Source of the DNA: a virus
IMG/VR virus record: IMGVR_UViG_3300017613_000733
Location: 1 to 24,806 of that record
Strand: one strand, 5' to 3'
DNA length: 24,806 bases
Below the pieces are notes generated by a model, which was not told where the DNA came from, did no database searches, and saw only the letters and a program-made list of their open reading frames with translations. The stretch's first letter is position 1, and each line of letters starts with the position of its first letter. Of this stretch, positions 1,848 through 24,806 are shown one piece after another. Both the position numbers and the translations under genes were made by a program.

Positions 1848-4800
1848 TTAATCACCTGCAAAGAAGATCAACTTATCCTCTGGGTGTAATAGTCCTTCTA
1901 TGTGATGATATACAGGAACTAATTTAGTAGTCCTCTTGTATAGCTTAGTTCTACCCTTATACCAACCACGCTCATATACGTCATTCCACTGCCAGAACTT
2001 AAACCATGTTACTAAGGATTCTATCTGGTTCATTGCGGGAACAGGACTCTGTGCTATCCTAAGCATCTCACTCGTTCCCATGAGTGGAACATAAACAGCA
2101 AGTTCAGTTACTAGTCTATTCACCTGATAAGCTGCCATATTAAGTGCCCAGTTCTCATCATCATCGTCAGCTAGATTAGTAAGTATATGTGCTAATGTAA
2201 TAGCAGCTATAAGATAAGCTGACTCAGACATCATACGCATCATATTAGCCTTTTGATGAGGCTTTAGCTCGCCCCAATGAGCTTTAGCTAAGAATTGTCC
2301 TTTCTTCAAGTCATTGAGCAACTGTCCGATGAAGTGGAGAGTAGTAGTATAGAAACCCTCTGTATGAACTTGCCCCTCAAAGTTATAACGACCCTTTTGA
2401 AAGCGCCTATTAAAACCAGGCTTCATCCATTTACGGAACATAATAGCTAATCGCCCTAGAGCATATCTCTGCATAGCAGCTCTATCCCTTTGGTTATAGA
2501 TACCGTGGAGCCTCTTGTTAACAAAGTTCTGCTTACGAACATACTCATTAAAGTCTCTTTCAATGAATAGCTGGCCATCTCTTTCACCACCTGCATAACG
2601 TAATTCTTTCTTTATCACAAGTTTATTACCAACTACTTCATGAGCTTCATATAAGTTCATCACATTACCCTGCTCATCCTTTACCTTAATAGTGTTAGCT
2701 ATAGCTAAAGATGTTCTAAGCTGCATTTGATGTTCACCAGCATGGTTAATAAAGAATAGTGCACTAAGGTTAAATAATTTACCTGCCCTAGTCTTACGAG
2801 TAGTATCGATCTCTCTAAGATCTGAGCTAAAAGATTGCATAGTATCAGCCTTCTCAGCCCATAGAGTCATCTTATTCTTTTGATCACGTAAGCCAACTTC
2901 ACCAAGTACTCCAGGTAATTCTGTAGCATAAGTTTTGTCCGCCCATAGTACATCCTTATGATCATAATATTCTCCAGCAATAGCTTCCTGTCTAATGAGT
3001 ATATTACCTAAGATAGGATTCTGTAATCCAGCATATACGTTAAAGGCCAGACCATGGATAGATACAAAGCGTCCTAATGTGTCAATCACTTTAGCTTTAT
3101 CTACCTCAATACCTAAGATAGGTATCGTCCATTTTCCTTCATTTCTCTTAAGCTGACCATAAATTACCATATCATAGTAGTCTGTTAGTCGCTCATAGGC
3201 CTTCCCACCAGCTTTATCAGATCTAGCTACTAAGTTCTCCATACGTTTAGCTGCAGACCCAAGTACTTCACCTACTCCTTTACCAGAGGAATCCATTTCT
3301 CCAATCGTACGCTTGCCAATCATATCTTTACCCATCTCTAACACATCAATGATCATATTCATATCATGATAGTCATGGGCCATAGCTGAAAACATAGACA
3401 TAGTAGCAACTATATCAGTAGATAAGCTCTTCTTATCTTTCACTTCATTAATGTATAGTACAGGTAAGAAGCTAATAGGATTACCTTCCTCATCGGTTAG
3501 TACCTTTTGTTGCTCAAGTTGAGCTCCACGTTCTGCTTCATCTTCCCTTACTCTAAAAGCATCCCCTACTTCCTTTTGTATCTCTTGTACATCCTTAAGT
3601 GTCTTAGCAGACTTTAACCTCTCAACAAGATCCTTACGTATCTGCGGAGCCATAAACTCACGCTGAAACTTACCAGGAAGTAGTGCATCTAATTTATCCT
3701 TCATCTCTCTGATAACATTAAAGAATGTCTCTTGAGCTTCTGTTAGATCTAGTGGCTGACCATACTTCTCTGTACTAGGCTGTGCTAACTCAGTACGGAA
3801 TACTTCCACACCTAAGTAAGTAGTAAACATATTACGCTTTACCCAAGCTTCATACTGTTCAGCTGTTAACTCTTCCTTCTTCTTAGCCATAATCTCTTTA
3901 GCGTCAGGCCTTGCTTCAGAATGCTCACTATACCAACCACCTACATCACTATCGTACTTTCTATCAAGTTCTTCCTTTAATCTCGATAAGAATAAATTAT
4001 CGTCAGCAAAGTTCTCATCTGCCATAGCTAGTTCAGCTTCTTTGACTACATCTAAGTTCTTAGCACCTTTGTACCAAGCAGCTAGTTCGTCTGCATTTAA
4101 GAAATCAAATGGGATCACTCTTCCTGTATTAGGATTAGTAGGTAGACCATACTTCTTTTCCATCTTGTCAAAGAACTCAGCCTTATCCTTATCATACTCA
4201 CCCCAGTTATGATCAGATATTAAGTTGCCTGTAAGACCCCCATCTTCATGACGTTCATATATCCAGTCTACTTCCTGTTCTCCAGAATCCTCAAGAGCTT
4301 TCAAAGCATCCTTAAGTATCTTCTGGTCTTGTATAGACTTTATACGAGCTCCTTCTTTAGTATCAGCCACTGCTTCATCTACCAACTTGAGTACATCATC
4401 AGATGATTCAGCCATAGCATCTAACCAGCGTTCAAAGAATCCTATATCACGCTCAGCAAACTGTAATGACTTAGTTAATTGCTTTTCATCATACTGATCT
4501 CCAGCAAATGGTTGCAAGAACTTAGCAAAGATGGGTACACCCATTTCATAATAGCTAGCTTCAACCCTACCAATACTCTTCTGCATCTCCTCAGCAAATT
4601 CAAGAATACCTTTCTCTACATTAGTGAGTCTACTTAGGTCAGCCATCGAAACATCTATTACTTCTATATTAGCAGCATCCCCTGATGTATATAGTTCTCC
4701 TCGTAACTCTGACGTTAGCATCTCTATAATAGGCTTATAAGCTAATGCATAGGTCTTCAACTCACGAAGTTTACCAGTTATATGACTCATAGAGTACATC

Positions 4801-7295
4801 TCATCATCACCTGCCATAATTTCCCTAGCTTCCTGTATCTCAGCCTCAATAACTTTCATCTCCTTAGCCATAGTCTGTAAGAATTGAATAACTCCTAACT
4901 CACTAGAGTTAGCTTCAAACTTTTTCTGCAGCTCATAATAAAGCTTACGATCAGCGCCTACAAAGTCTTGTTTACCGCGACCTCTATATATACGCATTTT
5001 CTTATTGATCGCCCGTAAGGCAGTTTGTAAGGACTTCTGCATAGGAGACAGATCATCTTCTGATAGATTAAAGAACTTAGTCTCTTTTGTTTTAGCTAGA
5101 GTTTCCATATTCCCTTTCAATTCTCCTGAAAGAATAGATACAGCAGTAGAGCCAAATATCTTCTCTACCTCTGCTTGGAATACCTTCTCATGTAAAGGCT
5201 TAAAGATTGCTAATACTTTATTAACTATCTTGCGTAGAATCTTTACTACAGCTAAGTCACCTTCTTGTTCATACTTCTTAATAATATGTTGTCCAAGTAA
5301 TTTACCAGCAGCTTCCTTCTTAAGTTTATTAATGTCCCCACCATAAGCACTGAAGTAAGTATCATAGTCTTTACCTAAGATCTCAATGTATCTCTCATCG
5401 ATCGCCTTAAGCATCATCTTAATTAAAGGATGTTCATCCCCTAAAGCTTCCATAAAGAAGTGAGAGAACTCTTCAGGTAATGTAGTGATATCTTCTTTAC
5501 CCTTAGCAATACGTACTACCTTATCTAACATATCTGCAACAGATACAGCGTCATAGCCAGTGTGTTCTATTAAGGAATCTAGACTCTCAACACTAACACC
5601 TAACTCAGCCAGTAAAGAAATTAGTCTTTCATTAAGTTGTTTATTAGCAGCTTTCTTAGATTGCTCTGTAAACTGAAATAATTTACCTTGGTTGTTCTCT
5701 GTGATCACATACGTGTAGAGGTCAGCTTGGCCAACCTTTTTAAACTCAATACTGTGAGCAGTACCGTTAATTTGATTGAACTTCTTAAGCCTGGCCAGAG
5801 CATTAACCCTTTGTTGATAGGATACCTCTTTCCTATGTAGACCTAACTGCTTTTTTAAAGGAGCAGGTTTACTAATAGGAGCAGCCTCCTTAGCTAGCTT
5901 CTTAGCTTGGTGTGCTTTAAACCCTGCTATATCTGCTTTAGAACCTGCTATATAAACTTGGTTAGGATTAAATACCACAGTAGCTATATGAGTATCACTA
6001 GTCTTTATATTGATTCCCCCATCTACTGTATTATCTTTCTTACGTGCCTCACTTAAACTATACCTATCATGCCCAGCTGGGTTTTTAATATTCAGTATAG
6101 CATAAATAGTCTCAGTTCTAGTAGCATAATCTCCTTTTTCCTTCCAACTAGAGTTTATACTAAAGGATAAATCTGATTCCAGTGGTTTATTTATTTTAAA
6201 CTCACTATCTAAAATACTCTTTTTGTTAGCCTCGGTTGTAAAATGATACATAAATCCTCTAACCTTGCTCTCAGGGAATATAGTATTAAGATATTCTCTA
6301 TACTCTTTCTCTGTACCTAACTTAAGTAACTCAGGAGTCTCCTGCATAACTTCTTGCACCTCGTTAGTCTTGCCTGGAGAAGCAAACAAGTCCTCAGGTG
6401 GAGCACTTACTTCAGGTACACCTTTAGTTCTGAGACTAGCCTCATCTTCTTTAGATTCGAAAGCTTTGTTATCTTCTAGTATACGTACCCCAATATCCAT
6501 ACCTTGTGCTAAGGCTGACTTACTTATCTTAGGATCTCTACCCAAACCTTTAGTAAACATCCTAGTTAAGATGTCCAAGAATTCATCCCATAAATTAGTG
6601 AATTTCTTTTCCTCAGTAGCTGGTTGCTCTTTAAGGAACTTAATAAGTTTAGGACTAGTAAAGATACCAACCATGAATTCTTCTAGATTAGAAAAAGCAT
6701 ATATACCTTCAGGAGCTATTTCCTTAAAGTGGTTATATAAATCCTGGAGTTCTTTAACATTAGTAGTACTTTGATTAATCATCTCCACAGATATAGAATG
6801 TAGTATCTCATGCAAAGCAGTCTCAGCTACTTCTTCTACATCCTTTTTAGCTACTATATGTATTTCTCTAGTTCCGTGATTATAATTCCCAACAGGAATA
6901 AATCCTCCTGTGGTTATACCCCTAGCTAAAGCAACTTCATCAGACACCCTCATCTTATAAGACTCTGATTCTGGTACAATCTTTACCTTAATTTCATCAT
7001 GAATTAAAGGTAATAATCTACGTGCTAACCTAACAAATCTAGGAGATAAGTTACCCTCCTCGTTATTAGCTAGTTTAACAAGAACTTCTTCTACGGTATA
7101 TTCATTACTGAACTTAATAGGCGTGTCATCAACCTCTGCGGTTAAAGCAGCGTTAGTCACCAGAAAGTATTCTACTTCTTCCATAGGGGGCATGATCGAA
7201 TCATTAGCTATAAAGAATTTATAGGCATCTAATTCACCTAAGCCTTCTACTAATGCTTTCCATTCAGGACTATGTATGTTAGGACAATTAGCCAT
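1848..7295 (-). CDS. Giant virion cargo protein with metallopeptidase-like, ADP-ribosyltransferase-like and hydrophobic C-terminal regions
   Basis: This 1815-aa protein is probably packaged in the virion and ejected into the host. Visible parts in order follow. Residues 100-250 are a zincin-like metallopeptidase with HEILH at 162-166 and a candidate third ligand at E205/E206. Residues about 346-452 have a YHFTT start (H351), an IYAILNIKNP strand, DGG and VVFNPNQVY (442-448), the pattern of ADP-ribosyltransferase-fold domains in phage polyvalent proteins. Residues about 595-670 have LPEEFSHFF (EEFSH 608-612) with E661 downstream, like a zincin that lost its first histidine. Residues about 720-1500 are mostly charged and helical. 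The C-terminal region has FRKWMKPGFNRRF and a hydrophobic segment at 1691-1709, suggesting membrane contact. Its ATG overlaps the stop of the polymerase gene by one base (TAATG), implying termination-reinitiation. ART activity and ejection are inferred; the ART-like domain could instead be a related barnase/EndoU-type nuclease fold. Confidence 0.85.
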   Translation of the reverse strand: MANCPNIHSPEWKALVEGLGELDAYKFFIANDSIMPPMEEVEYFLVTNAALTAEVDDTPIKFSNEYTVEEVLVKLANNEEGNLSPRFVRLARRLLPLIHDEIKVKIVPESESYKMRVSDEVALARGITTGGFIPVGNYNHGTREIHIVAKKDVEEVAETALHEILHSISVEMINQSTTNVKELQDLYNHFKEIAPEGIYAFSNLEEFMVGIFTSPKLIKFLKEQPATEEKKFTNLWDEFLDILTRMFTKGLGRDPKISKSALAQGMDIGVRILEDNKAFESKEDEASLRTKGVPEVSAPPEDLFASPGKTNEVQEVMQETPELLKLGTEKEYREYLNTIFPESKVRGFMYHFTTEANKKSILDSEFKINKPLESDLSFSINSSWKEKGDYATRTETIYAILNIKNPAGHDRYSLSEARKKDNTVDGGINIKTSDTHIATVVFNPNQVYIAGSKADIAGFKAHQAKKLAKEAAPISKPAPLKKQLGLHRKEVSYQQRVNALARLKKFNQINGTAHSIEFKKVGQADLYTYVITENNQGKLFQFTEQSKKAANKQLNERLISLLAELGVSVESLDSLIEHTGYDAVSVADMLDKVVRIAKGKEDITTLPEEFSHFFMEALGDEHPLIKMMLKAIDERYIEILGKDYDTYFSAYGGDINKLKKEAAGKLLGQHIIKKYEQEGDLAVVKILRKIVNKVLAIFKPLHEKVFQAEVEKIFGSTAVSILSGELKGNMETLAKTKETKFFNLSEDDLSPMQKSLQTALRAINKKMRIYRGRGKQDFVGADRKLYYELQKKFEANSSELGVIQFLQTMAKEMKVIEAEIQEAREIMAGDDEMYSMSHITGKLRELKTYALAYKPIIEMLTSELRGELYTSGDAANIEVIDVSMADLSRLTNVEKGILEFAEEMQKSIGRVEASYYEMGVPIFAKFLQPFAGDQYDEKQLTKSLQFAERDIGFFERWLDAMAESSDDVLKLVDEAVADTKEGARIKSIQDQKILKDALKALEDSGEQEVDWIYERHEDGGLTGNLISDHNWGEYDKDKAEFFDKMEKKYGLPTNPNTGRVIPFDFLNADELAAWYKGAKNLDVVKEAELAMADENFADDNLFLSRLKEELDRKYDSDVGGWYSEHSEARPDAKEIMAKKKEELTAEQYEAWVKRNMFTTYLGVEVFRTELAQPSTEKYGQPLDLTEAQETFFNVIREMKDKLDALLPGKFQREFMAPQIRKDLVERLKSAKTLKDVQEIQKEVGDAFRVREDEAERGAQLEQQKVLTDEEGNPISFLPVLYINEVKDKKSLSTDIVATMSMFSAMAHDYHDMNMIIDVLEMGKDMIGKRTIGEMDSSGKGVGEVLGSAAKRMENLVARSDKAGGKAYERLTDYYDMVIYGQLKRNEGKWTIPILGIEVDKAKVIDTLGRFVSIHGLAFNVYAGLQNPILGNILIRQEAIAGEYYDHKDVLWADKTYATELPGVLGEVGLRDQKNKMTLWAEKADTMQSFSSDLREIDTTRKTRAGKLFNLSALFFINHAGEHQMQLRTSLAIANTIKVKDEQGNVMNLYEAHEVVGNKLVIKKELRYAGGERDGQLFIERDFNEYVRKQNFVNKRLHGIYNQRDRAAMQRYALGRLAIMFRKWMKPGFNRRFQKGRYNFEGQVHTEGFYTTTLHFIGQLLNDLKKGQFLAKAHWGELKPHQKANMMRMMSESAYLIAAITLAHILTNLADDDDENWALNMAAYQVNRLVTELAVYVPLMGTSEMLRIAQSPVPAMNQIESLVTWFKFWQWNDVYERGWYKGRTKLYKRTTKLVPVYHHIEGLLHPEDKLIFFAGD

Positions 7296-10200
7296 TACTT
7301 ACACTCCTTTCTACGTTCTTCTGCAACTTCATCAGACATATTATTAAATTTATCAATTACACTATTAAATTCTCCTGGGCTAGCAAAATCACTCCAGTCT
7401 GTCAATCCCTCTCCGAGCTCATGCTCATCAGGTAAAATTGGAGGAGGTGCACCATCAGGTACATTCTCAGGGCCTTGAGGCTGCTGTAATGTAGGACTGT
7501 CTATCATGAGAGAACTCGAAACAGTTACTGATTTACTAATCAGCCCAGTCTTATTAGCATTCAACTCAGTCTCTAAACCAAAGTTATTCTTTAACTCTGT
7601 TTGTAGCCACTCAGCAAATCTAGTAGGCAGCTTAGCTTTATCAGAAGCAAACCCTTTAGGGAATACTATAGGCTTGTTTAAAGCCTTAAGTTCCGCAATC
7701 AATTTTGTGTTGACTTCAGTAAATTCTTTAAAGTCAGCATCAGTATCCTGATAATCTACATTCTCCCTAGTATTATAATCATACTTTTTCTTAGTAACAA
7801 TAGCATATGCATTGCTTAATCCTCTAATAATTGCTGAACCTCCACCCTGTCTATCAGGGAATGCTGTAATACTATGAGTATTCTCAGTAAATACATAAGC
7901 AGTTTCTGGATCAGCTTCAACATTCTTTCTAGTATAATTACCTGAAGTTATGCTAACCTCTATTGTAGGAGCTCCATCAAAAGGTACCTCAGCTTGTGCT
8001 AGTATTTGCTCAGGCACTTCCCCATGAGGAGCAGTAGGCCGAGCTTCATCAAGAAGCTGCTGAGTCTCCTTTAAATCCTGACCAACTTGTACTCTATTTG
8101 CATTAATAACACTCTCAGTACCTTCAAACATTGTGCCATCAATAGGAGCAGTGTACTCTGTTACACGATGAGGAATACCTAACTTACTTACCTTCTCATA
8201 AACACCATCTTCTGTATGCTTAAATAAATACCAGACACCGCTAATATTTGCTTTAACGTAAGGAGCGAAATATGTTATTTCTTCGTACTTTATCTTAAAT
8301 AAACTAGCGTCCTTCACAGTAGTAGGATCTACTAGGAATCCCAGAATAGCTCCCTTTTTATTCCTGATATAGTCACCGCTAATATTACTTAAATCTCTGT
8401 TAACACCTGTAACATACTTATCTTCGTACCAGTGGTTTCTATAGAACTGATCTATGAACATGCCAAAGTCAGTCATATCAACCTCACTATTATTCTCTAG
8501 TACTTCAGTTTTTAAGAAAGTATTGAAGTCACTAAACTGAGTGTAGTAACTAACAGGTATGAGATGCCCAAATGAGAAAGGGTTAAACCCAAAACCATGA
8601 GTATACATCACATACTTAACTAGCTTCTCACCAATTTCTTTCATCTTAGGATCTTTATTTCCTAGTAAACCTTCCCAATGCTGTACTAACATATCCTTAT
8701 GATAAGAAGATAAGCTTCCTGTGTTATCAAACCTCAATGAAGGTATAGGTGATTTATCATCTGATGGAACAATAGCTATCCTTCTAAGGAATTCATCTTC
8801 CTTTAGTCTAGGATTATCACGCATAGCTTTCGTAAACTCTGCAGGAAAGTTATTAATAATATCAGACTTATCTGATGGATCAAACAGTGGAGTAAACTTC
8901 TTAGATAGGTATGATAAGTATTGATAGTTTATAAACTCTATCTCATCAATTCCTATATCCTGATCAATCAAGGATGAGTTCTCCATTATCCGCTTCTTAA
9001 CAGCTTTGAATTCCATATTAAACCATGGGAACATAGCTGATATTCCATCAAATCTACTTTCAGCATGAGCTTTAAGTTCCTCTTCAGTCATAGATTCCCT
9101 CTGTTTCTGAGTTAAATCTGGATCACCATACACAGGTTTATCTAAACCATTTTCATAGAAGGAATCCATAGTAGGATAATCGGATTTAGCTGGGCCCTGC
9201 TTACGTACAGATCTAGTAAACTTACGTCCCTCACCATCTTCAGAGAGTTGTTTTGTTGGGATAATATTCTTTAATCCTTTAACACCTCCAGGAGCACCTT
9301 CATGCTCCATTGCTTTATCGATCTTCTCCATTAGGAACTCAGATCTAGCAAGTGTAGGGCCTAAGCTACCATTAGGACGATCAAACTTCAAGGCACTCAC
9401 TATATCATTAAGTACGGCACCTTTCTTACTATGTCTTTTAAACATTCTAAGTACATTAAGCTGATCCACAAAGTAATCATAATGAGTTTCATACACTTTC
9501 TTTAAAGCATCTTCTCTTTCAGTCTCATCTGTAAGTGCCTTAGCATTAGCTAATTCTTGAGCAACCTTTTTACCAGTAGTAATATTGTTTAACATGGTAT
9601 TAGTGTTCAAGTTAACATGAACCTTTGTGTCACCTCTATTCGTGTACTTACTTATGCCATCTCCAATCTCCTTAGTTAACTCTACTAAAGCTTGTGCTTC
9701 AGCTTTTCTATGTCCACCATAGTTATAGTACCTTCTATTAAGTTCCTTAATTATAGGCTGCGATGTAAAACTAAAGATAGTTGTTTCACTATAACCTAGA
9801 GAGGCTAGTAAAGCAACTGTATCTGCAGTATACAATGACATATTAATAATTGAGGCAATAGGATCTTTAGCATTATCTACAGCAGCAGATAAGAAAGATG
9901 ATATTACCCTGGAAATATAACCCTGCCCATCAATAGTTTTAACACCATTGATCTTAGTAGCTTTATGTCCATCGAACATAATAGCATTATTGAATTCTAC
10001 TTCACTCCACTGCAGCACTGCATGTGCAGTATTATGATTAGCGAATACAGAAATGAGTTCCTTACCAGTCATATTACGAGTAAATTGCTCTACCCAATCC
10101 TGACGTAAGTGAAGGTTAAGAGGCTTCTTAGCTTTAACCTCTTCAGCTAAACTATTGAGTTCATCATCAGTTAAGTTACTAATATCTTCGTATAGATTAC

Positions 10201-13200
10201 CATCTTCCAATAGAGTAATTATATTACCTATCTTCTTAAGGTTATCGAATCCACCTGGATTAATAAACTTATGGAAAGTAGTTTGATGAGTCATGATTGA
10301 CCACATAATATCTTGTAAACCATTAGCTCTTTGTGCCCTAGAACTACCCTCAATATCATCTAAGTCATACTTCTCTTTCTCAATAGTCTGTAATTTATAT
10401 CCAGCATCAGCTTCGAGTAACGCATTAACAGCTTTCTTAATGTTGCGATCTTCTCCTTTTAACTGGCTAAGATTATTATTAAGTACAACACCTAAAGTCC
10501 TATCACTAACATGATTGAAGCCCTTCTTTTTAAGTGCCTCTTTAATAGCAGCTTTGTCTACCACAGTATTGAAGTTGGGTATCATAACAAATAGCTTATC
10601 AATATCAAAGTCAGATCCTGCTATAGTAGTAATCTCAGAAGGTAACATAATAGATGCTCCAGACTCTTGAGGTAGAAACTTAACTACCTTCATAGGTAAT
10701 AAAGAATACTTATCCTCTGTAGGAATACGATAGCCTATCATCTTAAGCATCTCTTGTTGCTCTTTATTTAGTTTCTTAGGATCAAGGAAGCCTTTATCAT
10801 CCAGTAATGGTTGGAAGTATTTTTTACTAGTCCAAGGCATAGCTACTTCAGCATACTCTAAGGCCCCATCTTTCATCTTAAGATTAAGTTCATCAGAGAA
10901 TCCAAAGTTTGTTACCTGTACAAAGGATCCCCCATGAATCTTTTGCTTAGTAATCCTATTCCTAAAGACTGAAGTTACTAAGGCCTCAAGTCTCTTAGAG
11001 TGTAATGGATGATATAGAGGTAATTTAAAGTCACCATCTACTAATTGTAGAGCTTCTTCAAATTGCTCCCCTAAGTTTTGAGAACGAACTTCTTCCAGTA
11101 ATATTTTCTGGATACCTTCCTTAGTTAAGAATTCCTTCCTAACATTATCATAAGCAACCTCAAGGTCTTTACTTATTAACTGATTCCATTTATCCCATAA
11201 AGCACGCTTAGTTAAAGGTTCTTCTATACCACTAATTTTGAACATAGCATCTTCTGGTATATCAGCAAAGATAAGTTTCCTTGTCTGAGTACCAAAGATA
11301 TTCTCATCATCAATATGGTGAGGAGGAGTCTCCTGCTGGAGTCTATAATATCTATTATCTAATGTATGTACAGTGGCCTTACCTAGATTTTTAAAAGGTA
11401 CTTTACCAAATAGACCAGCCTTAACAACTGATTCAAAATGCATAGCATCAATAACTTTACCCGTCTCGTTATTCCCTTCTAGCGTATGTAGAATCTTGGC
11501 CATGGTTGGGGATTGGAAATCCTTATAACCATTCTTAGCATCTTCAGCACTAGGAGTTCTAACTGCACCAGTAGAATCTCTATAAGCAAGCTGTGGAGTT
11601 ACTATGAATTCTGAGTTCTTATGTTGAGTAGGTAGAACTACACCATCAACTTTATGCAATTGATACATAAAAGGCTTCATAGGATTCATGATGACTTCCA
11701 TATCATTTATGGTACCACCACCATCCTTGATTCTCTCAAAGGATTCATTAAGTACATCATTCCATCTACCTAATCCTATCTGAACTTTCCTAAACCTATC
11801 CATAGTAATATAGGACTGGCCATCAGCTACGTTCACATCTTTAGAAAAGAAGAATCTCTTAGTATCAGGATTAATAGCTACAGGCCTTTGCTCGCCTTTT
11901 AGCTCTCTAGTTTCCGTACCAGTTTTGTAACCATAGGAAGCTAGGATACTATACATCTTATCAGAACTAATCTGCTTCGCATCCACACTTACTTGTAAAG
12001 CCTTCTTCAGTTCCCCTAATATCTTAGAAGGAACTTCTACATCATCTACATATATATTATTATAGTCTTCTCCAGCTTCAATTACATTACCTTTAGGATC
12101 TGTATAGGTAGCTGTAGTATTCAAGAATAAACCAGGAGACCATAACTGCTTATTACGTTTTTGGAAATCAGAAGAACTCTTATAGAATGCTTCATCTCCA
12201 GAAGTAAGTTGTGATATCATAATAGATGCGAAGAATGAATCGAAGTAATACTGCTTAAGAAACTCATTCAGATCTTCCTTAGGTACTTCAGTACTTATCT
12301 TTCTATCATCACCTGTGATAGCCCAAGCCTCATCAGCTTTAGTCTTCCACTCGCTATACTTCTCCTCTAACCAAGCTTCGATGTTAGCCATAACAGCTTC
12401 CTTATTCTCTTCTAAGTTTTTCCCTAGAAAGTCTTTATTCAAAGAAGGTAAGTATATGAATTCATTCTTACGCTTATAAGCATCCATGAAAGCTACATCC
12501 TTACTGTTCTTAATCCTATTCATTCTAGTCTGTTCCTGTATAGCTACATTAAAAAGTGCCTTAACAACATCCTTTGTATTATCATTCTTTAGGAACTTAA
12601 CAAATCCCATAACAGGAGCATCTGCAAATATAGGCACTGCATAGAACCCATACTTACCTTTTACGTTGTTATTCAAATATTGGTTTATAGCAACGGCTTC
12701 TACCTGAGCTTCGTTCAGCTTAGTATATTTCTTACCCTTACGCTTGTGTTCCTTATATCCATCTAGGACTACAAACTCAATCTCTTCTCTATTCATAGCA
12801 TTATAATCCTGCTTAGGATCCTTAATTAAATCCTGTAGCCAAAGATTATCCTGATAGAATGGATCAGTGAGTAGATTATCTACCATAGTATTATCTCCCT
12901 TCTTAAGCTGAGCAATCATCTTAGTCATGAAGTTAGGAGGTATATGAGCATACGTCTTCTTGTTATCAATATTAAGGATAGAGGACTCAAATAGTTCTTC
13001 TCTATGTCTATTAATAAGATCAGACATTTCCTTAAGTCTCTTTGTCTCACCAACTGCTAGGTGTGGTAACGTGCCTTTCTGGAGCTTAGATATATAACTA
13101 TCCCTAACCAGGCCGTTCAGATACTCAAACCTTTCATACTTACTAATAAAATTTGGCTCACCTTTCACTCCCTTGTCTACTATAATCTTCTCAAGGTCAG

Positions 13201-16200
13201 TATAAGTTATATCCAATCCCATACGTTCAGTTAATGATAGGTAATCCAGGAAGTCGCCTTCGTCTAGAGCAGACTCTGTACGCTTCTTCTCAGCTAGAGC
13301 TGCAACGAAAGCTTCGAACTTCTGAGAGATATCATCTACCTGCTCGTCACGTATCTCCCCTTTAGAGTTAACTACAAAGTTGTCATGAGGAAGTGGATGC
13401 TCTAATGCATAAGACCAGTTATCTAGAACTATGTTCCTGGAATTTCTACGTGCTATATTAAAGACATTAAATCTACCACTCTCATCTTGAGTTACCATAA
13501 AGTATTTCATATGAGCCTTCATAAAGTCTACAGTAAATTTAGTCTTTAGAAGTGAGTCATTTTCTAAACGCTCAATCAAAGTATTATACTCAGGGTTCGC
13601 AACAGATAGTTCTGCAAGTTTAGCTGATATCTCTTCTGCAGAGTATAGATCAGCTAAGTCACGCTTAAGAGTATTATATATCCTATCAAAATCATAGTAC
13701 ATAGGGAATCCTAAATCATCATAGCGGAACTCAGGCTTGCCAAACTTATCATAAGATTGCTTACCGTTTACAGTCTTGGGTATAGGAACCTGTGATAGAA
13801 CAGTTCTTATCTCTTTAGATAAACTATCCTTACCAGACATCTGCTCAACCTGTACTTGCCAACCTTCAAGTCTAGTTTGTTCTTCCTCCTCAAGCTGTAT
13901 ATCCTCGGGCTGCTCTGCCTGTGGCCCTTGCTCACCCTTAGTAACTAGAGAGTCATTTCTGATCTTAGTTTTAATTCCACGTACAGCTAATTCTCTAGCA
14001 GCTAGTTCTCCTAACTTACCATATTTATTTATAATTTTCTTCTTACCCCTGATAGTAACTTCCGTCTTCTTAACGATGAAAGTATCTATCATAGCTTGAA
14101 TACGCTCAGCAATATAAGGATCATTAGGATTTTCCAACTTAGCCTTTTCACGCTGCTCTACAAGAGTCTGCTCAACTTCTCTATAGAAAAAGTCAATACC
14201 AAATTCCTTAGCTAGATCATGGTAAGAATAATTACTATAATCTTTTTGAGCTTCTGCCAAACCCTCCTTTAAGTCAGCGAGTGAAGTTAGAGGCTTACTA
14301 GCTTGCTTACTCTTAATGAAACTATTCATTGAAGTAATAAGCATATCGTTGATAGTAACAACCCTTCTATGCTGTTCACCAGGAGAATTCATTTCTTTTA
14401 TAAGATACCTAGGCTTCTGTGATTTAAAATTCTTCACATTAGCAGGTATAGGCTTACGGAATTTCTGACTCCAACTATTAGCTAGAATAAAGGTATCCTG
14501 CATACTAGTCCTATTGAATACAACTTGTCTAACGAATGCCCATAGTCCTTTAAAGAACCTATTGATACGTGCACCCCAAGATGTATTCTCCATCTCAGTC
14601 TCTACAAACTTCTTAAACTTTTCAGCCATACGCTCTTCTAGAGCTATCTTCTTAGCTTCTTGTTCGGTAAGCCCTTCTATGGAATCCATAACTTTTTTAA
14701 CCTCAGCAGCCATTAATGGTTTACTACTAGCTTCTTCTGCTAACAGTTTCTTCTGCTGAGCTTCTGATAAGTATAGGTTAAATACAGCGTGGAAAGCTTC
14801 ATGATAAGTAGTTCCTGTAGCAGCATTGTCAGATATATATACAGCAGCATTGTAGAATGTACCCCAAGCTAGTTCCCCACCTTTAAGTACTTCCTTAAGA
14901 TTCTGGAATACATGGAATGGTACGTTAGGGAATCTAGACTTAAACCAAGCCTCTTCCTTCTTACGATCCCATTGTTGCATATCCTCACTAGTCTTAAGGC
15001 TGAACCTTCTACTTGAGTCTGCTTGATTATTATCACGATTAGTGGCATTCTCAGCTTTAGGTGTAGGTTTAGTAGTAGGCTTAACCTCTGGAGTAGTAGG
15101 CTTAGTTTCTACAGGCTCCTGCTGAGGGTCAACAGCTACAACTTCCTCGTCCTTAACTTTAGGAGTAAGAGATTCATCAGTCTTATTAACATCTTCATTA
15201 TCAGACTTATATTCTACAACTGGTTCAGCTACAGCTTTATTCTCAGAAGCTTTTTCATCATGTGGATTATCCTTAGGCACTACAGGAACACTTCCCTTAG
15301 GAGCATAAGGTACCACATCTATCCTACTAGAATGGGTATGCTGGTTAGGATGTAAGTTAGTCCATAACCTACCCTCACTAGATACCATCTCATTATAAGT
15401 TTTTTGATCTCCATACTTAACTGTAGAACGTCTATTAATTTCCTTAGAGGATATCTGTAGAGGTATGCTCTGAAGTAACTTAATCATATCAGTATTAGTT
15501 CTAAGCTCATTCCTCTTAACCTCTAAAGGAGAGTCATTCTTTCTTGTAAAGGTGAAGGTATCAGTCTCCTTATTATATTCGTACTCCAGGTAAGCTACCT
15601 TAGTAGCAGCCTTTTGAACTTTACCAAAGGCTACTGTATTAGAACTTTCTAACTGAGCCATCAACTCTTCGTATAGAGCAGCATTATTAGGCAATCCTTC
15701 TGGCCCAATCACAGGCTCATTATATAATCTGAAAGGTACCCATTCTCCAGCAGAGTTTTGTATTATAAGATATGTTATACCAGCTCTTACTGCAGAAAAT
15801 TTACCAGTGCTCTTAGAAGTTTTCTTAATCACTGTAGTATTAACAGGCATCTTTTTCTGGTTAGGTACATGTAAGGTAAGACCATTAGCTGTCATGATAC
15901 CAATACCTAATAAGAAAGGCTGATCATTAGTTAATACTTGAGTAGGTTTAAGCTTCATCTCCTGAGCTTTTGTTTTCGAGAGAGTCCAGAATCTACCCGC
16001 ATGTATCTTATCTACTTTACCTCCAATAGAGAATCTATGTTCCCCTTTAGTTTTCTTAGTATTAATAGTCTCTGTAAAGATATCATTCCTAAGCTGTTGT
16101 AACTGAGCTTCTTGAGCTGTATCAGTGAACTTAACTTTACCTTTACCATATGCTTGATCCATACGAGGGAGTGTGCCAATAACTTTACCACTCTTCTTAT

Positions 16201-19116: not shown

Positions 19117-20577
19117 TTATAATACTTTCATAAATTTTTCAGGAGTTAATATAGTAGTGTTGCCTTCCCCATCCTTATACTCTACTTCATATCCCCATAA
19201 ACCATCTATATTGATAACAGGAATACTACGTGCTTTTCTACCACCGCTTAAATTTCTAACAGGAGCTTCTCCCGTTAGTCTGTTGTAAGAGGGTAAAATA
19301 TCCATATACAAGTTGTTCATTAACCCTTGCTTAGTATCTTTCATCCCAGGATCGCCTACAGCATATCTAAGAGTCTTACCACCCACTTTAGCTGTAGCAT
19401 ATAAAGCTCCATCTAAATAAGGATTATTTTGCATCTGACCTACTACTTGGAAAGTTTTCCAGAACTCATCAACTTTTTCATCATCCTTAAAGCCCTCTAG
19501 TATGTCAACAAGTTGGCCCTGACCATTTCCTCCTAATTGGAAGACAGGTACATCCCCTAAGGTAGATTTAACTAATTTAGTTTTGTTACTCATATCACTA
19601 GCCTTTTCCCATCTACGATATCCAAAACTTTGATCTTCTAAACCTTTATCAGCATAGTCTATACGTCTTTCCAGATCCTTTTGATCACCTATAGCATCGC
19701 CTTTCATAGGCCTTATCCTACCTTTAATATTAGCATACTCTTCGTCACTAGTACCGCCTACCCAGCCTTGGCCAAAGAGACCACTGTCACGAGTAGTACC
19801 GAAATCAAATTCTTCTGAAGCAGTGTTATATGTACCAGCAGCGAAGTCGTCAGATGTACCACCACTACCGTCAGCAGGATCTGGCATTCTAAACTTATTT
19901 CTTACTACATCCTCTATCACTCTCATCTCTGAATTAAAATATGCATCACCAGCTGCACGAGCATAAGCAAGTTGCCTAGCCATAGGTAGATTATTTTGAA
20001 CATATTCCTGAGCCATCTGATGAACTTCATTAAAGGTTTTGCCCTTAGTAGCACTACTATTAACCCAGGTATTTAATTCCTTACCTATGTCAACGTAGTC
20101 AGCTATTGGAGTTAGTGGATCCTGCATAGCTAGGCTTTCCATATAAGCAGGAAGCTTACCTTCAGTCACACGTTTATTAATGCCCTCTATATTTTTCTGA
20201 GCAGTCGTATACCTAGTTTGTATCTGACCTAACTCTCCAGACTGTAGATTAGTTTCTAATTCTCTACGCATTCCTTTCATATATGGAATTAACTGTGAGT
20301 AGTCACCCTTAGCACTAGCTATCTTATTTTTTATTGCATCGCCATAGGTCTTCTGGATTTGCTGTAGTCTCTCCTTGTCTGGGCCATAAGCCCTAACTGA
20401 GTTAACTAACCTATCACTAGCATCTGATAATGCTTCCCCTTGGAGGAAGTCTTGATGCTCTCTCTGCTTTGTCTGAGAGTACATGTTCAGCTGTTGTGCT
20501 TGTAAGCCAGCTAAAAAGTTCTGATTGATTGGGGTCAGTCTCTGACTAACACCTTGAGTAAATGGAGTTATAGCCAT
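19117..20577 (-). CDS. Putative virion cargo protein, mostly helical
   Basis: The 486-aa product is not recognisable by name. Residues about 15-210 are predominantly helical, rich in Gln, Lys, Glu and Ala, and could form a coiled coil. A Gly/Ser/Asp-rich linker follows near 235-265. The C-terminal half is more mixed and ends in an alpha/beta segment (IPVINIDGLWGYEVEY). There is no signal peptide or clear membrane segment. Its ATG is two bases after the stop of the preceding gene, and its stop is two bases before the start of the giant polymerase, so it belongs to the same tightly coupled unit. In crAss-like phages, genes between the muzzle and the RNA polymerase encode proteins packaged in the capsid or tail. 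A cargo or ejection role is therefore inferred from position and composition. Confidence 0.75.
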   Translation of the reverse strand: MAITPFTQGVSQRLTPINQNFLAGLQAQQLNMYSQTKQREHQDFLQGEALSDASDRLVNSVRAYGPDKERLQQIQKTYGDAIKNKIASAKGDYSQLIPYMKGMRRELETNLQSGELGQIQTRYTTAQKNIEGINKRVTEGKLPAYMESLAMQDPLTPIADYVDIGKELNTWVNSSATKGKTFNEVHQMAQEYVQNNLPMARQLAYARAAGDAYFNSEMRVIEDVVRNKFRMPDPADGSGGTSDDFAAGTYNTASEEFDFGTTRDSGLFGQGWVGGTSDEEYANIKGRIRPMKGDAIGDQKDLERRIDYADKGLEDQSFGYRRWEKASDMSNKTKLVKSTLGDVPVFQLGGNGQGQLVDILEGFKDDEKVDEFWKTFQVVGQMQNNPYLDGALYATAKVGGKTLRYAVGDPGMKDTKQGLMNNLYMDILPSYNRLTGEAPVRNLSGGRKARSIPVINIDGLWGYEVEYKDGEGNTTILTPEKFMKVL

Positions 20578-20579
20578 GC

Positions 20580-22523
20580 TTATTGTGTTAAATTATATGG
20601 GTCAAACGTACTTATCCTCTTATTAATATCATATAACTTCTTTACATAAGCCTCTTTCTCAGCTTGTTTGGCTGCAGGATTATATATCTCTGAAGTATTA
20701 TAAATAGGATTAAAATTAGGGTCTTGTTTATGAGTAGGAGGAGGTGCTTCTGACTGCTTATATAAAGACAAAAAGTTTACTCCTGTTAGTGCACCTAACT
20801 TAAGTAAATCCATTCTCTCTTGTTTAGTCAGTGGCTCATCCTTTAGCTTCTCTGCAGGCTTATCCCCAGATATAAATCTACTTCCATCAGATAATACATC
20901 TAGTGCTGCTTGTCCAGTTAAGGATACAGTCTCACTAATCTTCTCTGTAAATGATTTATCTTGGTTCCATATATCTCCTAAAGATTCTCCATATCCTGGA
21001 ATATCTTCTGCTATAGGAGAGTTGGCCCCTTGAGCAGCAGCCATAGATGCGATATCAGCATCATGAGCAGCCTTAGCAGGATCTACAGTACCTGTACCTT
21101 GTGGTGTAGTACTATTAGTTGTAGCTGGAGACTGTGGATTTAAATTAGCTGTATTAATATCAGGACGTAATATAGGATTATCTACTTTCTTTACAGGAGA
21201 CTCATAATCACCCATGATATTCTTATTAGTAGCATCAATATAACCTTTCATGAGCTCTTTGTTATCAGCTAAAGCAGCCTTATATAATGCTTGTTGGCCT
21301 ACATACTGTCCTAAATCAGATAGTTGACTTAATCCCATAGAAGCTAGATTACTTTTAGTAGCTTCACTCTGTAGATTAAATTGATCAACTCCATAGTCTG
21401 ATTGTGCATTCTGACCTTGAGCCATTAAAGATTGTCTAGCATTAAATGTATCAGCTTGCATTTGATTCTGAGCATCTACATTAGCTTTATACTGCTGAGC
21501 TTTAGATAGTGCTTGGCCACCTGCAGTCTGAGCTGCAATCTGTCCAGCCATGGAGTTCCTAAGGTTACGTCTAGTTATATTAGTCTGGCCTTCGATACCT
21601 CTAAGCTCTTCACTAACATCATACTCAGGAGCTTCTATACGTTCTGGAGTAATCTGATAGTCTTCCTTATTCAGTTTCTCAGTCTTGCCAAATACACCTC
21701 TTGCTAAGTTAGCAACAGCAGGTAAAGCTTGTGCTGCCATTGTTAGAGCTTCTGTATTACCCAAAGTATTTACTATACCACCTTTAAGGTTATCTCCAGG
21801 ATCACCTGTTAAAGTAGGGTCATGTGTATAAGTATCCTTAGTTTGTATAGAAGTTGGATGAGCACTATAAGTAGCTGGAGCTTGAGGTTGGATCCCTATA
21901 TCTAATTGCTCATATGGCACATCAGTATTATCATTACCAGTGTAATGGACTGGAGCTACTTGAGGCTCAATTACACCTGGCCAGCGAACCAAAGGGTTAG
22001 AAGGCTGAGTTAGGTCTAACCCTAAACCTGGTTGCATGAATCCTGACTGTCCAATAAAAGGAGGATCTGTTGGAGGAGCACTATAAGTAGCTGCAGAATC
22101 TTTATTATATGTAGTTGGTACATTAGCACCAGACCTAGTAGCTATAGCTTCAGGAACCCCTGTATTAGGAAATGCAGTAACTCCTTGAGTACCCATATTA
22201 ATAGGATCAATATAAGGATTCTGATAATTATCCAAGATATTAAAGTTTCCAAAGGTCTGCTCTTGTCCTACAGGAGGAATGTCTGGGTTTATATACCCAC
22301 CTAAATTAAAGTTTTCAGTGACGAACTGTGGAGCGACTCTAGTATTGTCAGCCTCCATAGCTACTCTCTGTATTTCTTGTTTCTGTTTTAAAGCTGTCAG
22401 TTCAGCTATTAAAGACTTCTCGGCCATAGGATCAAGCTCAGATAAATCATCCCCTAAACGGACTTTATACTTAGCCATGATCTTTTTAGCTTGAGAAGCA
22501 TATGAGGGTTTCTTCTTAGCCAT
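20580..22523 (-). CDS. Putative virion cargo protein with Ala/Gln-rich coiled coil
   Basis: The predicted product is 647 aa from the ATG at 22523. That start is preferred over one 57 bases upstream because it gives MAKKKPSYAS, like the next giant gene's MAKKTYAS, and overlaps the previous stop by only 8 bases (ATGGCTAA). Residues about 20-55 are a charged helix. Residues 60-255 are Pro/Gly/Thr/Asn-rich and probably disordered, with a short repeated TYSA(P/H)PT motif. Residues about 258-280 are hydrophobic with alanines. Residues about 306-436 are a long Ala/Gln-rich helical region as in phage ejection proteins. The C-terminal third is again polar and Pro-rich. No enzyme motif is visible. Position between the muzzle and the virion polymerase suggests a packaged or ejected protein (inference). 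Confidence 0.75.
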   Translation of the reverse strand: MAKKKPSYASQAKKIMAKYKVRLGDDLSELDPMAEKSLIAELTALKQKQEIQRVAMEADNTRVAPQFVTENFNLGGYINPDIPPVGQEQTFGNFNILDNYQNPYIDPINMGTQGVTAFPNTGVPEAIATRSGANVPTTYNKDSAATYSAPPTDPPFIGQSGFMQPGLGLDLTQPSNPLVRWPGVIEPQVAPVHYTGNDNTDVPYEQLDIGIQPQAPATYSAHPTSIQTKDTYTHDPTLTGDPGDNLKGGIVNTLGNTEALTMAAQALPAVANLARGVFGKTEKLNKEDYQITPERIEAPEYDVSEELRGIEGQTNITRRNLRNSMAGQIAAQTAGGQALSKAQQYKANVDAQNQMQADTFNARQSLMAQGQNAQSDYGVDQFNLQSEATKSNLASMGLSQLSDLGQYVGQQALYKAALADNKELMKGYIDATNKNIMGDYESPVKKVDNPILRPDINTANLNPQSPATTNSTTPQGTGTVDPAKAAHDADIASMAAAQGANSPIAEDIPGYGESLGDIWNQDKSFTEKISETVSLTGQAALDVLSDGSRFISGDKPAEKLKDEPLTKQERMDLLKLGALTGVNFLSLYKQSEAPPPTHKQDPNFNPIYNTSEIYNPAAKQAEKEAYVKKLYDINKRISTFDPYNLTQ

Positions 22524-23526
22524 CGTATTCAATATTATCTGAGAATATATAATCACCAAACTTGACTTCATTGTTGTCAACCATGGCTATATCTCCTAGT
22601 TTAATACTATCAGTGGTACCATTACCACCTTTAATTTCTGAAATACCTTTGTTTGTAGAGCCTAGTGACCCACCATAAGCTCTATTGAGCATAGTAGGAT
22701 CTAGGTTAGCATTATATTGTTGAGCAGCTGTTTGTTGGGTAGCCATATCTAATTGACCTTGCTGGGCTTTAGCAGCTTTGTCCTTACCAACTTGCCCTGC
22801 TATACTTCCAACACCACTAGCCATAAGAGGTACACCAGCAATAGCCCCGCCAGGAACTATACTGAGAGCAGCTCCAGCAGCAGTCTGTAAAATGCCTGGG
22901 ATATATCCCCCAAACTTAAACCCTGGTATATCAGTATTACCTACATTAGGTCTTTTATCTTTAGGTTTAGGATTACCTGGCCCCCATTGAATATCAACAG
23001 GGGAACCACCCTCATTACTGGAACCTAAATGCTTACCTAAATTCCTAGCTTGCCCATATATACTAGTACCTTGATCGGGTATAGACTTTAAGTAACCAGC
23101 TAGTGAAGGATCAGCAACTCTATTATTAAAATTATACTGATCAGATACTATTGTATCATTACCATGTATATTAATATTAGCCTGACCTAAGGTAGTCTTA
23201 AGGTTATATGCTGGATCTGTAGCCTTCTTTAATATTTCAGAATTCTTAGCAGAACCCCCCACATCACCGTATTGTGTTCCTGTGGCATAATCAGCATACT
23301 CTATAGTATTCTTACCTTTAGCTAAATTCTTTTTGGTAATATCCTTAAGAATCTTCATTTCTTCTGGGGTCAGGCTCTTCTCCGTAATAGGAGAGTCTCC
23401 ACCTGCTATATCGTAAAGTAGTTGGTTAGCTGCCAAAGGAACCCCTAGATTCTTATGCCTCATATCCCTACTAACTCCACCAAGAGTTCTACTCTTTCGC
23501 TTTCTCTTAGTCTTAGTTTCTGCCAT
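22516..23526 (-). CDS. Putative virion cargo or ejection protein with glycine-zipper-like segment
   Basis: This 336-aa product is first after the mapped promoter. It begins with a very basic stretch (KTKRKRKSR). Residues about 30-180 form a globular domain with DQYNFNN at 129-135 and YGQARNLG at 157-164, which I cannot name. Residues 205-246 are Gly/Ala-rich and hydrophobic (FKFGGYIPGILQTAAGAA, then IVPGGAIAGVPLMASGVGS), a glycine-zipper-like pattern that could insert in a membrane. A Gln/Ala-rich helix at 248-272 and a C-terminal beta-rich tail (GDIAMVDNNEVKFGDYIFSD) follow. The ATG is 20 bases downstream of the -7 promoter element, giving a leader of only about 10-15 nt without a Shine-Dalgarno sequence. 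The gene overlaps the next by 8 bases. A cargo or membrane-penetration role is inferred. Confidence 0.75.
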   Translation of the reverse strand: MAETKTKRKRKSRTLGGVSRDMRHKNLGVPLAANQLLYDIAGGDSPITEKSLTPEEMKILKDITKKNLAKGKNTIEYADYATGTQYGDVGGSAKNSEILKKATDPAYNLKTTLGQANINIHGNDTIVSDQYNFNNRVADPSLAGYLKSIPDQGTSIYGQARNLGKHLGSSNEGGSPVDIQWGPGNPKPKDKRPNVGNTDIPGFKFGGYIPGILQTAAGAALSIVPGGAIAGVPLMASGVGSIAGQVGKDKAAKAQQGQLDMATQQTAAQQYNANLDPTMLNRAYGGSLGSTNKGISEIKGGNGTTDSIKLGDIAMVDNNEVKFGDYIFSDNIEYDG

Positions 23527-23618: not shown

Positions 23619-24806
23619 TTATCTAAGGTGAGGTAAGAAATATACTAACACATCATGTAAGTTCATTTTATATCCCTTAGTGTTGTCATAGTAGAGTTTT
23701 AGAAACATGTAAGTATCTCTTAGCCTGGACTTTGAATCTAGACTATCACGATCTAACATAAATCTCCATAACCTAACTTTATTCTTACGCTTGACCTTAT
23801 CAACTGTTAAAGGAATTACTCCAGTATCTTGATATTGATTCCACGCCTCATATTGATAGAAGGTTTCATCAGTAGCTGTTCCATCAGAAGTATTCTGAAC
23901 ATACTCTACATTAGCATAAACCTTACTCTTATCAGGCATTGGGTTAGCTATTAAAGTAATCGTAGTATCATATACACCACCATAGAATTCTCCAGCATTG
24001 CCTATATCATGTACATAGACATTTGCAGTAGGAGCACTATTAGGCTCTACAGATAATAGTGTACCATTAATCTCCGTATATATAGCTGGCACAAAATCAT
24101 AGAAGGATTCAAAGCCTAGGCCATATTCAGAGTAGCTTAAAGTTTCTCGTGTAGCGTAATCTGTAAAGCTAAATAATATCCTATTATTGGCAGAATCATA
24201 TATACTATGTACGCCCACTCCTTGTAAGGTATTATCCACTGTAAGTAGGTCTCCAGTAAGATTATTCTTTAACCAGGACTCCATACCATTTGAAGCACTT
24301 AATGGGCCCAAGCCTTCGCCAGTATAAGACATGATTGCCTTATTAGTAGCATCGAAGTAATATAAGCCGTTATTAGAGCTTACAACTGAGAACTGATGTC
24401 TAGTACCATATTTTGTAGATACGTACACATGCGAGTCGAGAACGCCTCCTGTGCCCAATACAAGCTCTGTATCATTCTCTGCATTGATAACAACTCCACG
24501 TTCATTTACAGAAGCTACTCCAAATGCATACCATTGAATAAATACTAAGCGATCATTAAAGTTATGTAAACTAGTTATCCCACCATAGTTAGATTGTACA
24601 TCTAGCTTATTATCAGGTAAGAAGGATAACCAACTATCAGCTAATTCTCCATATACCTTTTGTAGGCTGTTCCTGATTCTACTATCATAGTCAACTATTC
24701 CTGTAGATAATAGATATTCAGCTGGATAATTAATAATAGTATTTCCCTGAGAGTATACAGGATTGTATAGCATTAAATCATAGGACTGCGTATAAGGATC
24801 ATAATA
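23619..24806 (-). CDS. Muzzle/tail-stabilisation-like protein, partial
   Basis: The reading frame stays open to the window end (the last 36 bases encode YYDPYTQSYDLM), so the N-terminus lies outside and the ATG at 24773 is probably internal. The visible 396 residues are rich in Tyr, Asn, Gly and short beta strands. They include YGGITSLHNFNDRLVFIQ, SVNERGVVI, LVLGTGG and repeated aromatic turns, a pattern typical of the beta-propeller-like tail stabilisation proteins (P22 gp10 type) and of the crAss muzzle that closes the tail tip. The C-terminus is beta-rich and ends in a short LHDVLVYFLPHLR helix or strand. It is followed by a 92-bp gap containing the promoter for the cargo operon, with no convincing terminator. 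The assignment rests on recalled family patterns plus position next to the virion polymerase block. Confidence 0.7.
   Translation of the reverse strand, partial: YYDPYTQSYDLMLYNPVYSQGNTIINYPAEYLLSTGIVDYDSRIRNSLQKVYGELADSWLSFLPDNKLDVQSNYGGITSLHNFNDRLVFIQWYAFGVASVNERGVVINAENDTELVLGTGGVLDSHVYVSTKYGTRHQFSVVSSNNGLYYFDATNKAIMSYTGEGLGPLSASNGMESWLKNNLTGDLLTVDNTLQGVGVHSIYDSANNRILFSFTDYATRETLSYSEYGLGFESFYDFVPAIYTEINGTLLSVEPNSAPTANVYVHDIGNAGEFYGGVYDTTITLIANPMPDKSKVYANVEYVQNTSDGTATDETFYQYEAWNQYQDTGVIPLTVDKVKRKNKVRLWRFMLDRDSLDSKSRLRDTYMFLKLYYDNTKGYKMNLHDVLVYFLPHLR

What the first reader, a model, noticed from the sequence alone, without database searches (positions are those of the whole stretch)
5930..6260. 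ADP-ribosyltransferase-like domain inside an ejected-cargo candidate
Residues about 346-452 of the 1815-aa protein read YHFTT, then IYAILNIKNPAGHD, then DGG and VVFNPNQVYIAG. This order matches my recollection of ADP-ribosyltransferase-fold domains in phage polyvalent proteins (His at strand 1, an 'F-NP-NQ' terminal strand). T4 injects the ART Alt to modify host RNA polymerase. A crAss-like phage injecting an ART with its own polymerase would be a parallel takeover strategy not usually noted for this gene block.
Basis: partly seen in the sequence, partly recalled or inferred. Interest (0 to 1): 0.75.

Follow-up and report, generated by a model that had tools for sequence, protein, structure and literature searches.

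The report
Phage ADP-ribosyltransferase-fold domain beside RNA polymerase
A crAss-like phage carries, next to the RNA polymerase that its relatives package in the virion, a domain folded like enzymes that tag proteins with ADP-ribose; this copy lacks one of three expected catalytic residues, and the general idea is already published for other phages.

Summary
The ART call holds. A profile of 45 relatives that excludes the window finds residues 319-462 at 89 bits, E 5e-26; the best of 2000 shuffles scores 11.7. Of 37 aligned members, 31 match Pfam ART-PolyVal. AlphaFold gives pLDDT 91, and the 50 best PDB fold matches are all ART-superfamily entries, though the best E is only 0.007. In 32 of 40 examined contexts the module lies inside or beside RNA-polymerase-like or gp49-like genes. 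crAss001 gp49 and gp50 are virion cargo (PMC10172136), so injection is likely but inferred. Two limits. The polyvalent-protein ART active site is His-Tyr-Asp (PMC5512222); the window and its nearest relative have His-Ser-Asp and lack the PARP-type Glu, so activity is uncertain. And ART plus virion RNA polymerase as an Alt-like strategy was proposed in 2017, while two gut crassvirus proteins are already named 'ART-PolyVal-like'. New here: how often crAss-like phages place the module at the polymerase/gp49 junction, and the Tyr-less subtype.

The parts
1848..7295 (-). P0001, 1815-aa polyvalent protein: zincin motif, ART-like domain, gp49-like C-terminal two thirds
   Evidence: ORF; 551-1812 matches crAss001 gp49 at 34%, E 3e-119
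5892..6344 (-). ART-fold domain, residues 318-468
   Evidence: family HMM hit 319-462, 86.5 bits; AlphaFold pLDDT 91.4; Foldseek top 50 PDB matches all ART superfamily
6243..6245 (-). His351, strand 1
   Evidence: His in 43 of 46 relatives; in predicted strand 349-353
6165..6167 (-). Ser377, in the place of the strand-2 Tyr
   Evidence: Tyr in 29, Phe in 6, Ser only in L001 of 46 relatives; in predicted strand 376-379
6021..6023 (-). Asp425 of DGG, probable third catalytic position of the H-Y-D triad
   Evidence: Asp in 37 of 46 relatives; the triad is from PMC5512222; equating it with Asp425 is inference
5982..5984 (-). Ala438, position of the PARP-type Glu (NEYVVF)
   Evidence: Glu in 17 of 46 relatives, Ala in the window and L001
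5958..5960 (-). Gln446 of F-x-P-x-Q, between the last two strands
   Evidence: invariant in relatives, by construction of the scan pattern
6798..6812 (-). HEILH zincin metallopeptidase motif, residues 162-166, 157 aa upstream of the ART domain
   Evidence: sequence; HExxH within 450 aa upstream of the ART in 9 relatives; L102 aligns over residues 161-248 at E about 1e-5
1860..5645 (-). gp49-like region (RNA-polymerase-associated virion cargo), residues 551-1812
   Evidence: gp49 in the virion: PMC10172136
7295..19114 (-). P0002, 3939-aa gp50-like protein; residues 2286-3673 (8096-12259) match crAss001 gp50 and overlap phi14:2 g066, the catalytic RNA polymerase subunit
   Evidence: its stop overlaps the P0001 start (TAATG)
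14789..14803 (-). HEAFH zincin motif of P0002
   Evidence: sequence; region 1323-1504 matches crAss001 gp47 at E 7e-18
19117..23526 (-). P0003, P0004, P0005: in the positions of the cargo-protein genes; P0005 has a weak crAss_CARG1 match
   Evidence: gene order; PF25725 E 0.14
23619..24806 (-). C-terminal part of the crassvirus muzzle protein, running off the window end
   Evidence: PF25731 E 6.7e-58

Best explanation
Residues 318-468 are an ADP-ribosyltransferase-superfamily domain of the ART-PolyVal/PARP-like type, inserted between a zincin-like N-terminus and the gp49-like body of a crAss-like phage cargo protein. Most likely the protein is packaged in the head, passes with the virion RNA polymerase through the tail before the DNA, and refolds in the cytoplasm, where the ART domain modifies a host protein (transcription machinery or a defence component) at the start of infection. 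Shown by computation: the fold, the family, the neighbourhood. Inferred from homologues: packaging and injection. Not shown: catalysis and target; the Ser in place of the catalytic Tyr leaves a noncatalytic or altered activity quite possible.
For: Leave-out HMM 89 bits against at most 11.7 in shuffles, core alone above 4000 shuffles; 31 of 37 members match PF18760, best E 2.9e-14; L047 passes the curated cut-offs of PF18760 and of PARP PF00644. AlphaFold pLDDT 91.4, pTM 0.82; 50 of 50 listed PDB matches are ARTs; the viral structure library gives ART-PolyVal proteins, among them crassvirus and RNA-polymerase proteins. Relative L047 matches tankyrase at 1.2e-4 and AcrIF11 (6kyf) at 1.7e-4. The module lies inside or beside gp50/gp49-like genes in 32 of 40 contexts. 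gp49 and gp50 of crAss001 are virion proteins.
Against: The window copy alone is below the Pfam cut-off (15.9 against 31.2 bits) and its best PDB fold match has E 0.0068 and TM about 0.5. Tyr is replaced by Ser and the PARP-type Glu by Ala. crAss001, phi14:2, crAssphage ZA and DAC15 show no match to PF18760, so the function is dispensable for the group. No packaging or activity data exist for this phage.
Confidence: 0.6

Rival explanations
1. The domain keeps the ART fold but has lost catalysis; it binds NAD, ADP-ribose or a partner, or is a structural spacer, as PARP13 does among PARPs.
For: Tyr to Ser and Glu to Ala in both known members of this subtype; the best single PDB match is PARP13/ZC3HAV1, known to be inactive (own knowledge).
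Against: H351 and D425 are kept, and DGGINIKTSDTH is identical between the window and L001, 62% identical overall, which suggests continuing constraint.
Confidence: 0.3
2. It is an active ART but serves counter-defence (as the anti-CRISPR ART AcrIF11 does) rather than takeover of host RNA polymerase.
For: The canonical relative L047 matches AcrIF11 6kyf at E 1.7e-4; AcrIF11 acts with an Asp in place of the usual Glu (PMC12421852); the hypervariable core (21% identity) between conserved ends suggests changing targets.
Against: It sits in the transcription block, not among early anti-defence genes; no target evidence either way.
Confidence: 0.3
3. It is not an ART; the resemblance comes from shared ends around an unrelated core.
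For: Most of the profile score lies in the conserved leader and tail; core identity within the family is 21%.
Against: The core alone beats 4000 shuffles, L001 gives ART-PolyVal E 0.0013, and the predicted strands H351-, S377-, DGG- and VVF- follow ART order with pLDDT 91 and ART-only PDB matches.
Confidence: 0.04

Closest known systems
ART-PolyVal (Pfam PF18760; Tox-ART-HYD2 clade of Iyer et al. 2017, PMC5512222)
   Same: Fold, strand-1 His, conserved D-G, F-x-P-x-Q end strand, zincin neighbour, large polyvalent phage protein with RNA polymerase nearby.
   Different: Strand-2 Tyr is Ser; below the Pfam cut-off on its own; attached to the crassvirus gp49-like protein instead of an N4-type RNA polymerase.
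ART fused to the N4-like virion RNA polymerase of Roseovarius Plymouth podovirus 1 (CBX87992.1)
   Same: ART in a packaged polymerase protein; proposed Alt-like role.
   Different: Different RNA polymerase class; here the ART lies in the neighbouring gp49-like protein.
ART-PolyVal-like proteins of gut crassviruses cr116_1 and cr130_1
   Same: PF18760 over the cut-off in the polymerase block: in the polymerase gene of cr116_1, near the start of the next gene in cr130_1.
   Different: Only weak matches to the window family's profile, and not over its conserved leader.
T4 Alt
   Same: Head-packaged, injected ART that modifies host RNA polymerase (mechanistic analogy).
   Different: R-S-E clade, not H-Y-D; no sequence match seen here.
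AcrIF11 anti-CRISPR ART
   Same: Fold match to family member L047; phage ART with an Asp in the catalytic place.
   Different: Small stand-alone protein, not virion cargo.

Membership tests
ART superfamily | split beta-sheet ART fold | tested here: met
   pLDDT 91.4 model; all 50 listed PDB matches are ARTs, best E 0.0068
ART-PolyVal / HYD2 clade | Pfam PF18760 score over the curated cut-off | tested here: not met
   window 15.9 bits, L001 20.0, cut-off 31.2; other family members up to 54.6 bits
ART-PolyVal / HYD2 clade | His in strand 1 | tested here: met
   H351, 43 of 46 relatives
ART-PolyVal / HYD2 clade | Tyr in strand 2 | tested here: not met
   S377 in the window, Ser also in L001; Tyr in 29 of 46 relatives
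ART-PolyVal / HYD2 clade | Asp in strand 5 | tested here: inconclusive
   D425 is kept, Asp in 37 of 46; that it is the Asp meant in PMC5512222 is inference
ART-PolyVal / HYD2 clade | NAD-dependent transfer activity | not testable with these tools
   needs an assay
T4 Alt-like injected ART | R-S-E active site | tested here: not met
   His at the strand-1 position
T4 Alt-like injected ART | packaged in the virion and injected | not testable with these tools
   inferred from crAss001 gp49 in virions
Crassvirus gp49-like cargo protein | homology to crAss001 gp49 downstream of the RNA polymerase gene | tested here: met
   residues 551-1812, 34% identity, E 3e-119; P0002 matches gp50

The most novel reading that the evidence does not exclude
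crAss-like phages use the boundary between virion RNA polymerase and gp49 as a slot for exchangeable injected ART effectors, with conserved ends that allow cores to be swapped by recombination, and the window subtype is an H-S-D ART with changed chemistry or target.
Probability: 0.25. Interest if true: 0.7.

Novelty: new variant of a known kind. Interest (0 to 1): 0.45.

Why it matters
crAss-like phages are among the most abundant phages, and how they take over the cell is largely unknown. A common ART module in the proteins thought to be injected with their RNA polymerase gives a concrete, testable candidate for early host modification or counter-defence. The variable core between conserved ends would make it a comparative set for finding targets.

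Tried and rejected
Direct Pfam scan of the whole protein: no ART hit; it showed only with the domain alone. PHROGs: nothing. PDB by sequence: nothing for the single domain, two irrelevant hits with the profile. tblastn in INPHARED phages: none with the window domain or L053, only insignificant ones with L001 and two weak ones with L047. Scan of genomes with the two-sequence alignment: none. Scans for more members of the window subtype found only L001. Q446 as catalytic was set aside. A profile of zincin regions from relatives did not find the window segment significantly (E 0.07), so the zincin call rests on the motif and one pairwise match.

Full report
Observation. The 1815-aa ORF lies at window 1848-7295 on the minus strand. 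The motifs are at residues 350 (YHFTT), 425 (DGGINIK) and 440 (VVFNPNQ), so H351 and Q446 are numbered correctly; the stated coordinates hold.

What the protein is. The window holds the end of a crassvirus muzzle gene (PF25731, E 6.7e-58). Residues 551-1812 match crAss001 gp49 at 34% identity (crAss001 gene table), and the upstream 3939-aa protein matches gp50 over residues 2286-3673 and part of gp47; part of the same stretch matches phi14:2 g066, annotated from proteomics as the catalytic RNA polymerase subunit. Mass spectrometry found gp45, gp46, gp47, gp49 and gp50 in crAss001 virions (PMC10172136). P0001 is therefore a gp49-like cargo protein with about 550 N-terminal residues outside that match: they hold a zincin motif (HEILH, 162-166) and the domain in question. 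All listed phage-collection matches to P0001 begin at residue 466 or later, and the domain alone found nothing there.

Is it an ART? The domain alone gives sub-threshold hits to ART-PolyVal and Tox-ART-HYD1 (both E 0.024). Its closest relative, L001, 62% identical, gives ART-PolyVal E 0.0013. A DNA-pattern scan of viral contigs gathered 66 stretches encoding the tail motif. A profile of 45 of them, without the window and L001, finds P0001 at 89 bits, E 5e-26, against 11.7 bits for the best of 2000 shuffles. Because these sequences share conserved ends around a variable core (75%, 21% and 76% mean identity for leader, core and tail), I tested the core alone: window 15.7 and L001 20.1 bits, best of 4000 shuffles 11.1. 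Of 37 aligned members 31 match PF18760, best E 2.9e-14, and L047 also passes the PARP cut-off. AlphaFold on that alignment gives pLDDT 91.4 and pTM 0.82 with strands at 349-353, 376-379, 395-401, 426-431, 437-441 and 447-449. The 50 listed PDB matches are all ARTs: PARP13, PARP4, KptA, PARP1, PARP10, tankyrases; the E-values are modest (0.0068 at best). The canonical relative L047 reaches 1.2e-4 with tankyrase 2 and 1.7e-4 with AcrIF11. I take the fold as established by computation.

Catalytic residues. Iyer et al. 2017 describe the polyvalent ART site as His in strand 1, Tyr in strand 2, Asp in strand 5 (PMC5512222). In the alignment H351 is His in 43 of 46 relatives; position 377 is Tyr in 29 and Phe in 6 but Ser in the window and L001; D425 is Asp in 37; position 438, where PARPs have Glu, is Glu in 17 and Ala in the window and L001. 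H-[YF]-D is complete in 25 of 47 rows, window counted among the 47. So this copy keeps two of three residues. That D425 is the published Asp is my reading, not a test. Pocket geometry could not be measured, since coordinates are not given. Invariance of P444 and Q446 is by construction of the pattern.

Neighbourhood. In 40 contexts fetched around the module, it lies inside a gp49-like ORF in 12, inside an RNA-polymerase-like ORF in 11 and next to one in 9; 8 show neither, some at contig ends. Two pairs of contexts overlap (L082/L083 are one contig; L079/L106 look alike), so the contexts are not fully independent. A common place is the boundary between polymerase and gp49: the end of the former or the start of the latter. 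Nine relatives have HExxH within 450 aa upstream of the ART, the metallopeptidase-ART pairing described in PMC5512222. At least 23 of 50 contigs carry a crassvirus muzzle gene. Among ten named phages, PF18760 is over its cut-off only in cr116_1 and cr130_1, both in the polymerase block; crAss001, phi14:2, crAssphage ZA and DAC15 show no match.

Mechanism. Best explanation: a packaged, injected ART that modifies a host protein early in infection. Fold and context are shown; packaging and injection are inferred from crAss001; catalysis and target are not shown. Rivals: a noncatalytic ART fold, and an active ART with a counter-defence target in the manner of AcrIF11 (PMC12421852).

Novelty. Iyer et al. 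already proposed that ARTs fused to N4-like virion polymerases act like T4 Alt, and 'ART-PolyVal-like' is already a database name for cr116_1 and cr130_1 proteins. I found no paper in the held library that discusses ARTs in the crassvirus transcription block; the main survey of that block has no occurrence of 'ADP' in its text. The library omits most subscription papers. New here are the frequency of the module at that junction and the Tyr-less subtype.

Noticed in passing
L001-L068, ART modules: Leader and tail of the module are also more alike at third codon positions (0.77) than the core (0.67; 0.63 expected from core codon usage), which hints at recombination between conserved ends.
   Followed up: partly
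L087, L105, and others: Some proteins carry two or three module copies or pieces in a row.
   Followed up: no
L111, L112, L114, L117, L118, L122, L124: Relatives of the module in genome contigs, several titled Patescibacteria (Nomurabacteria, Falkowbacteria, Paceibacterota), some contigs of 470-590 kb.
   Followed up: no
window 7295-19114, P0002 residues 3725-3832: DUF7831 match over its cut-off (E 2.7e-9); L051 encodes a 69% identical stretch.
   Followed up: no
L132 (cr126_1): The polymerase-like gene is annotated DUF1768; from own knowledge that is the NADAR domain, linked to ADP-ribose, which would be a second NAD-related domain in this gene block.
   Followed up: no
L001:1948-2805: An ORF resembling a GIY-YIG homing endonuclease sits between the ART-bearing ORF and the gp49-like ORF (by eye, not searched).
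   Followed up: no
window 443-1495, plus strand: ATP-dependent DNA ligase gene (PF01068 E 2.8e-12) downstream of the cargo block on the other strand.
   Followed up: no
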